A stretch of 64,000 bases of DNA from Leptolyngbya sp. FACHB-321 (lineage in GTDB: Bacteria > Cyanobacteriota > Cyanobacteriia > Leptolyngbyales > Leptolyngbyaceae): positions 62,001-126,000 of the forward strand of contig NZ_JACJPI010000061.1 in assembly GCF_014695975.1 (NCBI RefSeq). Reading direction: 5' to 3'. The position numbers were made by a program, and so were the translations under genes. Shown here in pieces: positions 16,581 through 20,220 of the stretch (position 1 is its first letter; each line of letters begins with the position of its first letter). The notes under the pieces were generated by a model. The model saw nothing but the letters and a program-made list of their open reading frames with translations. It searched no databases and was not told where the DNA came from.

Positions 16581-17909
16581 ATGTCACCCCCCAAACTTTC
16601 CAAACGAGTCTCGACTGCGCTGATTAATGCCCTCAGTGCTGGTGTTGTGCCACGGGTTGGGCTAGAACACATCGCTGTGGGGCGCGAACGGGAGATACAG
16701 GCACTTTTGCAAGACCTTGACAATATTGCAGGGGGTGGAGCAGCCTTTCGTTTTGTGGTGGGGCGCTATGGCGCAGGTAAGAGCTTCACTCTCCAGTTGC
16801 TTCGCAATCACGCGATGGAACAAGGCTTTGTCGTTGCCGACGCCGACCTTACTCCAGAACGTCGTTTGGCAGGCAGCAATGGTGCCAGTCTTGCTACGTA
16901 CCGTGAGCTAATGCACAACTTGGCAACGAAAAGTAGACCCGATGGTGGCGCACTGACGATTATTCTAGAGCGTTGGATTGCCGGTATACAGACGCAGGTA
17001 GCTCAAGAAACGGGCAAAAAACCAAACGACGATGGGTTTGACAGTCAGGTCGAAGCAAAAATTCGCGAAGTGGTCAAAGATGTCGCTGATTTAGTGAATG
17101 GCTTTGAATTCGCCAACGTCATTATTGCCTACTGGTCGGGCTATCGCACGGATGATGACACCAAGAAAACAGCGGCACTCCGTTGGTTGCGGGGCGAGTT
17201 TGCGACCAAAACGGAAGCGCGGGCGGCTTTAGGCGTACGGGTGATTATTGATGACGAAACCTGGTACGACTACATCAAGCTCGTAGCTCGATTCGTGTCA
17301 GATTTGGGTTATAAAGGCTTGCTCATCTTTCTGGATGAAGCCATTCATTTGTACAAAATCAACACAACGATCGCCCGTCAGAATAACTACGACAAGTTGC
17401 TGGCAATGTTTAACGATGCCATGCAGGGGCGAGTTGGTCACCTGGGCACAGTGATCGGCGGCACACCGCAATTGCTGGAAGATCCACGTCGAGGGCTTTA
17501 CAGCGATCCAGCTTGGCAGCGTCGTACTGCCAAAAGTCGTTTTGTCAAAGCTGGCGTTCAGGATATGTCGGGTCCTGCTATTTGGCTAGAACCGCTTACG
17601 AAAGAAGATATTCTACAACTACTGCAACGCCTGACGGAAATTTATGCGGCTCATCATACCAGCCAGCCGCAGCTTACCCAACGAGAGCTTCAGGATTTTC
17701 TAGGAGCCGTCACTAATCGCGTGGGTGCAGAAACTCTCCTGACACCGGGCGAAGTCGTGCGCGATTTCATTGGGGTGTTAAATATCTTGCAGCAGAACCC
17801 GCAAATGACACTCAATCAGATTGTACACAGTGCCAGTTTTCAGCCATCGAAAGCGCATAAAGATGTGTCGATCGACGAAACCAGTGAGTTTGCTGAATTT
17901 ACGGTTTAA
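16581..17909 (+). CDS. BrxD-like P-loop ATPase (DUF2791 / BrxC-BrxD family)
   Basis: The 442-residue protein has Walker A GRYGAGKS at 61-68, Walker B LLIFLDEA at 247-254, an HVNIxVGR-like start motif (HIAVGREREIQALLQDLDNI) and a C-terminal helical part (RVGAETLLTPGEVVRDFIGV). This is the layout of the DUF2791 family, which includes BrxD of type 2 BREX phage-defence loci. In those loci brxD lies next to the helicase gene brxHI, and a matching helicase follows here after 121 bp. None of pglW, pglX, pglY or pglZ is present in the window. The pair also occurs elsewhere beside TerB-domain genes; none was seen here. A role in DNA-level defence or DNA repair is inference. Confidence 0.8.
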   Translation: MSPPKLSKRVSTALINALSAGVVPRVGLEHIAVGREREIQALLQDLDNIAGGGAAFRFVVGRYGAGKSFTLQLLRNHAMEQGFVVADADLTPERRLAGSNGASLATYRELMHNLATKSRPDGGALTIILERWIAGIQTQVAQETGKKPNDDGFDSQVEAKIREVVKDVADLVNGFEFANVIIAYWSGYRTDDDTKKTAALRWLRGEFATKTEARAALGVRVIIDDETWYDYIKLVARFVSDLGYKGLLIFLDEAIHLYKINTTIARQNNYDKLLAMFNDAMQGRVGHLGTVIGGTPQLLEDPRRGLYSDPAWQRRTAKSRFVKAGVQDMSGPAIWLEPLTKEDILQLLQRLTEIYAAHHTSQPQLTQRELQDFLGAVTNRVGAETLLTPGEVVRDFIGVLNILQQNPQMTLNQIVHSASFQPSKAHKDVSIDETSEFAEFTV

Positions 17910-18030
17910 AGCGTGCAAACTCAAGACGCTTTGTGCGTAAAGAGGCTCGGGCTTAGTCATAACCAGGCTTAGTCACATGACTCTGAGCTTAGAATGAGCT
18001 TTTTAAACCAGAGCCTTTCTTGTAATTGCT

Positions 18031-20220
18031 ATGTCTTCCTCCTATCACCGTCTTGCGCCCTTTATTCAAGCCTATATCTACAATCAGGGCTGGGCTGATC
18101 TGCGCCCCGTGCAGCTTGAGGCGTGTCGCGTCATCTTTGAAACTGACGCGCATCTGTTGATTGCAGCCGGTACCGCTTCTGGCAAGACCGAAGCCGCCTT
18201 TTTGCCTGTGCTGACGCTGTTGCATGATGACCCACCGACCAGTATCGGTGCCATTTACATTGGACCGATCAAAGCGCTGATTAATGATCAGTTCGATCGC
18301 CTCTCCGATCTTCTGAAGCAAGCGGATATTCCGGTTTCGGCATGGCATGGTGATATTGCCCAAAGCCGGAAAAAGCAAGTGCTTCGGCAGCCTAGAGGCA
18401 TTCTTCAAATTACGCCCGAATCATTAGAAAGCTTGTTAATCAACAAGAGTACCGAACTCGATCGGCTGTTTGGTGACTTGCACTTTATCATTATTGACGA
18501 AATTCATGCGTTTATCGGCTCCGATCGTGGGGCGCAAATTCTTTGCCAGTTGTCTCGTCTGGCTCAGATTACGCAAAACCAGCCACGACGGATTGGGCTA
18601 TCTGCCACGCTAGGCGATTACGGTATGGCAGAAGACTGGTTGCGAGCAGGCACCGATCGTCTTGTCACCACACCCCATCTGCCAGCAGTGCCACGTAAAA
18701 TTCAACTGGCGCTAGAGCACTTCCACACAGCCAGTCTTGTTGTGCGGGCACGCGGTGATACACGAGATGAAGCTTTTAGCCCGTATCAGCGTCACCTTTT
18801 TGAGCAAAGCCAGGGTCGCAAATGCCTGATCTTTGCCAACGGACGGTCTGAAACCGAAAACGTTATCGCCTCACTGCGACAAATTGCCCAGGCTAAAGGA
18901 TCTCCCGACATCTATCACGTTCATCACGGCAGCATTGCGGCACCGCTAAGGGAAGCAGCAGAAAACGCCATGCGCGATCCGACTAGTCCTACCGTGACAG
19001 CGGCAACCGTCACCTTTGAGATGGGGATTGATCTGGGGCAGCTCGATCGCGTGATTCAACTTGAAGCACCACCCTCGGTTGCCAGTTTTCTACAACGATT
19101 GGGGCGATCGGGTCGGCGGGGTAGCCCTGCCGATATGCGGTTTGTTTGCGCTGAAGACAAGCCGACGGGTGGTGAATCGCTCCCCGAACTCATTCCCTGG
19201 CAGTTGCTTCAGTGCATCGCCGTCATTCAGCTTTATTTAGAAGAGAAGTGGATTGAGCCGATCGCCCCACTGCACTATCCCTTTAGCCTCCTGTATCAGC
19301 AAACGATGAGCACTCTAGTTGCGTTGGGTGAACTCTCTCCCGCAGCCCTGGCGCAGCGCGTCCTGACCTTGCCGCCCTTTCGTGCCATCACTCAGGATGA
19401 TTTCCGCCAGGTGCTGCGCCATCTGATTGAGCTTGACCACATCCAGCGCACTAAGGAAAACGGACTGATTATCGGGCTAACCGCCGAACGGATTGTGAAA
19501 AGCTTCAAGTTTTACGCGATCTTCCCCGACACGGAAGATTACGCCGTATGGAGTGACGGCATTGAACTGGGTACGGTTGTTGTGCCGCCAGCCGTTGGCG
19601 ATCGCCTTTCCCTCGCTGGACGCACCTGGGAAGTGACTGAAGTAAACAGCAGCCGTAAGGTGCTTCAGGTGAAGCCTGCGCTCGGCGTTTCTACCGTTTC
19701 CTGGCGCGGCAGCAGCGGCAACATCCATACCCGTGTGCTGCAACGAATGCGACAGGCGTTACTAGAAGAGACTGAATACCTCTATCTTCAGCCTGGTGCC
19801 AAAGCTCGGTTAGCCGCAGCACGCAAACTCGCTCAGAAAGAAGGATTAGAGAGCAGTCACCTCTTTCCTCTGGAAGGGAATGCCTGCTGCATTTTGCCCT
19901 GGGCTGGCACGATCGCAGTTCGCACCCTAGAACGTTTTTTGCGTCTCCATTGCCGCGATGCACTCAAGATCAAAGGTGTAGTGGGACGATCGCCCTATTT
20001 TCTGGTCGTCAATATGGGCAAATGCAGCACCGTTAGCCTGTATCACGAACTTAAATCTCTGAACGATCGTCGGCTCAGCGCGATCGAGCTACTAGGCGAA
20101 GAAGAGGCACCCAAACTGCAAAAATATGACGAATTCATACCGACCGATCTCCTGCGTCGAGCGTTTGCAAGCGACCAACTAGATGTCACAGCCCTGGGAA
20201 GCCTTATCAACGATTGGTAG
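18031..20220 (+). CDS. BrxHI-like DEAD/DEAH-box helicase (Lhr-like)
   Basis: The 729-residue superfamily 2 helicase has a Q-motif-like LRPVQ, motif I AGTASGKT at 46-53, Ia YIGPIKALINDQ, II DEIH at 156-159, III SAT at 191-193 and VI QRLGRSGRRG at 355-364. Beyond the two RecA lobes (to about 380) lies a winged-helix-like and beta-rich region typical of Lhr-type enzymes. Together with the preceding BrxD-like ATPase it reproduces the brxD-brxHI pair of type 2 BREX. The start ATG at 18031 gives MSSSYHRLAPFIQAYIYNQG. The 121-bp gap makes one transcript likely. Substrate (DNA or RNA) and direction are not evident. Confidence 0.85.
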   Translation: MSSSYHRLAPFIQAYIYNQGWADLRPVQLEACRVIFETDAHLLIAAGTASGKTEAAFLPVLTLLHDDPPTSIGAIYIGPIKALINDQFDRLSDLLKQADIPVSAWHGDIAQSRKKQVLRQPRGILQITPESLESLLINKSTELDRLFGDLHFIIIDEIHAFIGSDRGAQILCQLSRLAQITQNQPRRIGLSATLGDYGMAEDWLRAGTDRLVTTPHLPAVPRKIQLALEHFHTASLVVRARGDTRDEAFSPYQRHLFEQSQGRKCLIFANGRSETENVIASLRQIAQAKGSPDIYHVHHGSIAAPLREAAENAMRDPTSPTVTAATVTFEMGIDLGQLDRVIQLEAPPSVASFLQRLGRSGRRGSPADMRFVCAEDKPTGGESLPELIPWQLLQCIAVIQLYLEEKWIEPIAPLHYPFSLLYQQTMSTLVALGELSPAALAQRVLTLPPFRAITQDDFRQVLRHLIELDHIQRTKENGLIIGLTAERIVKSFKFYAIFPDTEDYAVWSDGIELGTVVVPPAVGDRLSLAGRTWEVTEVNSSRKVLQVKPALGVSTVSWRGSSGNIHTRVLQRMRQALLEETEYLYLQPGAKARLAAARKLAQKEGLESSHLFPLEGNACCILPWAGTIAVRTLERFLRLHCRDALKIKGVVGRSPYFLVVNMGKCSTVSLYHELKSLNDRRLSAIELLGEEEAPKLQKYDEFIPTDLLRRAFASDQLDVTALGSLINDW

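What the first reader, a model, noticed from the sequence alone, without database searches (positions are those of the whole stretch)
16581..20220. Stand-alone BrxD-BrxHI-like ATPase/helicase pair without the rest of BREX
Seen: a DUF2791-type P-loop ATPase (Walker A 61-68, Walker B 247-254) followed after 121 bp by an Lhr-like helicase with all SF2 motifs. Known: brxD and brxHI are the accessory pair specific to type 2 BREX loci beside pglW, pglX, pglY and pglZ. Inference: here the pair is alone among housekeeping genes, so it may be a reduced defence or DNA-repair module with its own job. The pair is also known beside TerB-domain genes in other bacteria, so it probably can be recruited by several systems. 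This is the strongest candidate for an undescribed system in the window.
Basis: partly seen in the sequence, partly recalled or inferred. Interest (0 to 1): 0.75.

Follow-up and report, generated by a model that had tools for sequence, protein, structure and literature searches.

The report
Scattered Shango defence genes in cyanobacteria
The two adjacent genes are the ATPase and helicase of a Shango-type anti-phage system, not a leftover of BREX; in this cyanobacterial lineage the system's three genes are scattered over the chromosome yet are inherited together, and the third protein is a membrane-anchored form, which is unusual for a defence system.

Summary
The two genes are real: a BrxC/BrxD-family ATPase (16581-17909) and an SF2/Lhr-like helicase (18031-20220), 121 bp apart. 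The BREX reading fails. Against PADLOC they score as SngB (593 vs BrxD 190 bits) and SngC (805 vs BrxHI 431). A sister species' genuine PglZ-BrxD-BrxHI locus scores the opposite way, and the window's own genome has no PglZ match. The pair is not alone. Across 242 cyanobacterial genomes, all 58 with SngB also have SngC, 2 have only SngC and 182 have neither; 57 of the 58 also have a TerB_C protein (SngA). Yet SngB and SngC lie within 3 kb of each other in only 21 of 58, and in several near-closed genomes all three genes are 0.4-5 Mb apart. In the window's clade SngA has become a membrane anchor, a long coiled coil and TerB_C. It sits in an A-B-C operon in family f32 but on another contig in the window's genome. 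Best explanation: a vertically inherited, dispersed Shango variant in which membrane-tethered SngA recruits an ORC/Cdc6-like ATPase that loads the SngC helicase. Defence is inferred from canonical Shango; domestication is not excluded. New variant of a known kind.

The parts
16581..17909 (+). sngB-like gene: ORC/Cdc6-type AAA+ ATPase (442 aa), PF10923 BrxC/BrxD family, Shango clade
   Evidence: PADLOC SngB 593 bits vs BrxD 190; Pfam PF10923 553 bits; SngB tree places it in the cyanobacterial clade; model resembles ORC2/Cdc6
16761..16784 (+). Walker A GRYGAGKS, residues 61-68 of the ATPase
   Evidence: G61, Y63, G64, G66, K67, S68 invariant in 23 homologues
17319..17339 (+). Walker B strand LLIFLDE, residues 247-253 of the ATPase
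   Evidence: D252 and E253 invariant; beta strand 247-252 in the model
17910..18030 (+). 121-bp spacer; in a sister species (L033) about 0.85 kb with a small antisense membrane-protein ORF, and B-C gaps are about 0.8-1 kb in all six sister genomes
18031..20220 (+). sngC-like gene: SF2 (Ski2/Lhr-like) helicase (729 aa) with WH_Lhr winged helix
   Evidence: PADLOC SngC 805 bits vs BrxHI 431; Pfam DEAD, Helicase_C, WH_Lhr; tree
18169..18189 (+). helicase motif I GTASGKT (residues 47-53)
18496..18507 (+). helicase motif II DEIH (residues 156-159)
19102..19119 (+). helicase motif VI GRSGRR (residues 358-363)

Best explanation
The pair is SngB and SngC of a cyanobacterial variant of Shango whose third component, SngA, is encoded elsewhere in the same genome (G000:C83, about 111716-113236, 506 aa). 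SHOWN by sequence: family membership; near-perfect co-occurrence of the three genes; an A-B-C operon in one cyanobacterial family and dispersal in others; SngA remodelled to a two-helix membrane anchor, a long coiled coil and a TerB_C domain. INFERRED: TerB_C at the end of the coiled coil docks SngB at the membrane; SngB, an ORC/Cdc6-like AAA+ ATPase, oligomerises on DNA and loads or activates SngC, which translocates on or unwinds incoming or replicating foreign DNA, and this blocks phage multiplication as canonical Shango does. The scattered genes behave as vertically inherited, near-core genes rather than as a mobile cassette.
For: Discriminating profiles: SngB 593 vs BrxD 190 bits, SngC 805 vs BrxHI 431; control BREX pair next to PglZ in sister genome G002 scores BrxD 551 vs SngB 145 and BrxHI 910 vs SngC 461. 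Co-occurrence in 242 genomes: 58 with B and C, 0 B only, 2 C only, 182 neither (Fisher 4e-54); 57 of 58 B+C genomes have SngA (1e-44). A-B-C operon in G115, G124, G133, G153, G238 with gaps of 44-241 bp and in named species such as Sphaerospermopsis aphanizomenoides and Microseira wollei. Same TerB_C protein near SngB inside the window's own family in G008, G012, G013, G015, G024, G028. Trees of SngB and SngC: the canonical Shango sampled forms one clade in each; in the SngC tree the cyanobacterial window clade has 100% support and within it rows group by family. In the one clade that lost both B and C, the 24 most conserved TerB_C positions fall to 54-79% identity against 88-100% where B and C are present. 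SngA model: hydrophobic helix 19-46, continuous helix 49-307, TerB_C domain 341-427, two hydropathy peaks. SngB model resembles archaeal ORC2 and Cdc6, Z 12.2 and 11.3. Canonical Shango restricts phages (PMC10250203); BrxD has been proposed to load BrxHI (PMC12839542).
Against: No experiment on this variant. Fisher values ignore shared ancestry. Co-loss of B and C with TerB_C decay is one clade in the own family, and flanking parts of SngA also diverged there; two f32 genomes (G159, G195) keep an intact-looking SngA without B and C. The region is not a defence island; conservation (88-89% identity within the genus, the same as neighbouring PyrB) is unlike an arms race. The SngB model is moderate (pLDDT 72) and that fold match only says AAA+ of ORC type.
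Confidence: 0.68

Rival explanations
1. Domesticated genome-maintenance system: the scattered trio has left defence and works as a membrane-linked helicase-loading apparatus in replication, recombination or DNA repair.
For: Dispersed, vertically inherited, among housekeeping genes; no defence genes clustering with dispersed B and C loci (9 PADLOC families, each in one of 93 flanking ORFs); dN/dS about 0.04-0.05; no hits in phage records or viral contigs and no plasmid hit above 60% identity; SngC also resembles the ligase-associated DNA-damage helicase family at 210 bits, far below its cut-off of 850.
Against: Lost cleanly in whole clades, so it is not essential; present in only about a quarter of cyanobacterial genomes; operonic A-B-C in f32 and on Paenibacillus plasmids.
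Confidence: 0.25
2. Stand-alone BREX type 2 BrxD-BrxHI pair: a reduced BREX module.
For: PF10923 is named BrxC/BrxD; the helicases share a clade with BrxHI (PMC12278908).
Against: Profile margins of about 400 bits in favour of SngB and SngC; the sister genome's true BREX pair is a different, distant lineage; no PglZ in the genome.
Confidence: 0.02
3. Two-gene SngBC remnant: SngA was lost and the TerB_C protein on contig C83 is unrelated to it, so the pair is decaying or has a job of its own.
For: SngA lies on another contig and lacks TerB_N; its match to the SngA model is modest at 64-66 bits; G210 and G022 keep C without B.
Against: 57 of 58 genomes keep an A; the same protein is in an operon with B and C in f32 and near B in six genomes of the own family; strong purifying selection on B and C.
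Confidence: 0.05

Closest known systems
Shango (SngABC), Pseudomonas aeruginosa PA14 / E. coli type
   Same: Three genes: TerB_C protein, PF10923 ATPase, Ski2/Lhr-like helicase; same order A-B-C where clustered; best PADLOC hits
   Different: The sampled canonical Shango forms a separate clade in the SngB and SngC trees; SngA has no TerB_N/TerB but a membrane hairpin and long coiled coil; genes dispersed and vertically inherited rather than one mobile cassette
BREX type 2 accessory pair BrxD-BrxHI
   Same: Homologous ATPase and helicase, adjacent, same order
   Different: Distant sequence lineage, no PglZ, TerB_C partner instead
Hachiman, Dpd (DpdJ), Druantia helicases
   Same: SF2 helicases of defence systems; DpdJ and DruE group with SngC/BrxHI (PMC12278908)
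   Different: No ORC-type ATPase plus TerB_C partner set; weaker scores
Zorya (ZorAB membrane complex with long cytoplasmic tail plus helicase ZorD)
   Same: Only an architectural analogy from memory: membrane anchor, long helical rod, helicase
   Different: No sequence relation was tested or found

Membership tests
Shango | SngB ATPase of the Shango lineage | tested here: met
   593 bits to SngB vs 190 to BrxD; control pair reversed
Shango | SngC helicase of the Shango lineage | tested here: met
   805 bits to SngC vs 431 to BrxHI
Shango | TerB-family protein SngA in the same genome | tested here: met
   PDLC03958 match E 2.4e-17 at G000:C83; Pfam TerB_C 36.6 bits over cut-off 26.3
Shango | Full SngA architecture with TerB_N and central TerB | tested here: not met
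   Only TerB_C found; TM hairpin and coiled coil instead; TerB_N and TerB present in a canonical Phaeobacter SngA
Shango | One contiguous A-B-C operon | tested here: not met
   B and C adjacent, A on another contig in the window's genome; operon present in family f32 of the same clade
Shango | Anti-phage activity | not testable with these tools
   Shown only for canonical Shango (PMC10250203)
BREX type 2 | PglZ in the genome | tested here: not met
   No PF08665 match in G000, a draft of 97% completeness
BREX type 2 | BrxD equivalog score | tested here: not met
   191 bits against NCBIfam cut-off 350

The most novel reading that the evidence does not exclude
A defence system has been domesticated in cyanobacteria: its operon has broken up repeatedly and the three unlinked genes persist as near-core genes with a membrane-anchored coiled-coil SngA, forming a membrane-tethered ORC-like helicase loader that serves chromosome maintenance or resident innate immunity rather than a mobile defence cassette.
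Probability: 0.3. Interest if true: 0.8.

Novelty: new variant of a known kind. Interest (0 to 1): 0.62.

Why it matters
Defence genes are usually found because their parts sit side by side in mobile islands. The remodelled SngA also gives a concrete handle on the unknown mechanism of Shango: it points to TerB_C as the conserved docking part and to the membrane as the place of action. It makes directly testable whether a phage-defence system can become a resident core function.

Tried and rejected
Solved-structure sequence search for SngB gave nothing. Phage and viral-contig searches for SngB gave nothing. A PADLOC scan of the other window genes gave only single hits per family, mostly to many PD-T4-6 models, which I read as one generic protein kinase. 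The idea that the A-protein decay in B/C-less genomes is many independent events was rejected: the tree shows one clade. Domain-wide identity did not isolate the decay to TerB_C alone, as other parts diverged as well. Whether the dispersal is an assembly artefact was checked: in G011, G030, G033 and G224 all three genes sit on one multi-megabase contig 0.4-5 Mb apart, and several 'other contig' cases lie in contig interiors. The 2026 BREX survey has no mention of TerB or Shango, and literature searches found no account of Shango mechanism or of a cyanobacterial variant.

Full report
OBSERVATION. Both genes exist as described. The ATPase matches PF10923 at 553 bits and the helicase matches DEAD, Helicase_C and the Lhr winged helix. 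Walker A is residues 61-68 and the Walker B acidic pair is D252-E253. All SF2 motifs looked for are present.

NOT BREX. Pfam's name for PF10923 suggests BREX, but that family contains several lineages. Against PADLOC models the ATPase scores 593 bits to SngB and 190 to BrxD, and the helicase 805 to SngC and 431 to BrxHI; NCBIfam BrxD scores 191, below its cut-off of 350. The same test therefore separates the two systems in both directions. The window's own genome has no PglZ match.

THE MISSING THIRD GENE. The SngA model finds one match in the own genome, on contig C83, with E 2.4e-17. It is a 506-aa protein with a Pfam TerB_C domain above cut-off, two N-terminal hydrophobic segments and a long coiled coil. 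It sits between biotin carboxylase/DUF2459 and cobalamin/NDH/topoisomerase genes. A homologue from Sphaerospermopsis models as a hydrophobic helix 19-46, one continuous helix 49-307, a disordered linker and a compact TerB_C domain 341-427 (pTM is low, as expected for a rod). SngA proteins of Paenibacillus and Phaeobacter plasmids carry TerB_N and TerB_C, and in Phaeobacter also TerB.

CO-OCCURRENCE WITHOUT LINKAGE. In 242 genomes of the class, 58 have both SngB and SngC, none has SngB alone, 2 have SngC alone and 182 have neither; 57 of the 58 have an SngA. A further genome (G111) has only a 250-bit SngB fragment and was not counted. The scores are strongly separated: full-length true SngB above 530 bits, and the next lineage (BrxD-type) about 150. 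Yet SngB and SngC lie within 3 kb of each other in only 21 of 58, a few kb apart in 2, more than 10 kb apart on one contig in 6 and on different contigs in 29. In G011, G030, G033 and G224 all three genes are on one large contig, 0.4 to 5 Mb apart. Other genomes keep A-B (G008, G012, G024, G028), B-C (the window's genus, G021), or the whole A-B-C cluster (f32). On the SngB tree the B-C state needs at least 10 changes and the A-B state 6, with 6 and 5 forced by well-supported branches. Canonical-type Shango in cyanobacteria is also often split: 13 of 21 such genomes have SngC away from SngB; some of these assemblies are fragmented.

EVOLUTION. In the SngC tree the canonical Shango sampled forms one clade (99) and the cyanobacterial window clade another (100), with Paenibacillus plasmid operons next to the latter and Treponema outside them; in the SngB tree canonical Shango is likewise one clade (100), with Paenibacillus and Treponema beside it (some branches are long and their placement is unsure). 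Within the window clade rows group by family. The Paenibacillus neighbours are A-B-C operons with a TerB_N/TerB_C SngA, so the operon and TerB_N are likely ancestral, and the membrane-coil SngA and the dispersal are cyanobacterial changes (inference). dN/dS within the genus is about 0.04 for B, 0.05 for C and 0.13 for A, with synonymous sites near saturation, so these are rough. SngB is as conserved as PyrB within the genus (88-89% vs 88%) and less so across families. No phage or viral-contig homologue was found and plasmid hits are all under 60% identity.

FUNCTIONAL COUPLING OF A WITH B AND C. Seven genomes of the own family lack B and C but keep A; they form one clade. Their TerB_C core, TMPELLIDSINE in nearly all B/C-positive genomes, has changed to forms such as TTPEKLVASIND, TTPEEMLASINQ and TSLDELLDSINR; agreement with the 24 conserved positions is 54-79% against 88-100%. 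This is one phylogenetic event and the rest of the protein diverged as well, so it is supporting, not decisive.

MECHANISM (inferred). SngB models as an AAA+ ATPase most like archaeal ORC2/Cdc6, with TnsC also listed. BrxD has been proposed to load BrxHI like a replicative helicase loader (PMC12839542). The simplest model is a membrane-tethered loader: SngA holds SngB through TerB_C, and SngB loads SngC on DNA entering or replicating near the membrane. Canonical Shango gives 10-100-fold protection on plates against many of the phages tested (PMC10250203), and I found no description of its mechanism.

VERDICT. A new variant of a known kind. The surprising part is not the pair but the strict genome-wide co-occurrence of three often unlinked genes and the remodelled SngA. 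Whether it still defends or has been domesticated is open.

Noticed in passing
L136:1748-4552 (G058, family f25): An SngA variant directly upstream of SngB has TerB_C together with a C-terminal WD40 beta-propeller; the same genome also keeps a membrane-coil SngA elsewhere. SngA looks modular around a constant TerB_C.
   Followed up: partly
L179 (G010), L064 (G015), L065/L180 (G013): Three genomes of the own family carry a second, canonical-type Shango operon besides the dispersed one; SngA and SngC are split into pieces in G010, SngA in G013 and SngB in G015, so these look degraded.
   Followed up: partly
L033:11483-11752: A sister species has a small antisense membrane-protein ORF (transglycosylase-associated type, by eye) between sngB and sngC; the window's genome lacks it.
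   Followed up: no
G235, G204, G242, G216 (class survey): Canonical-type Shango with all three genes on separate contigs or far apart in family f26, an apparently independent break-up of the operon.
   Followed up: partly
L206, L207: Canonical Shango operons on Phaeobacter and Natrinema plasmids lie beside SbcCD-like SMC ATPase and exonuclease genes.
   Followed up: no
L204:3505-6663: A Paenibacillus peoriae plasmid SngA has an extra N-terminal region of about 600 residues without any Pfam match.
   Followed up: no
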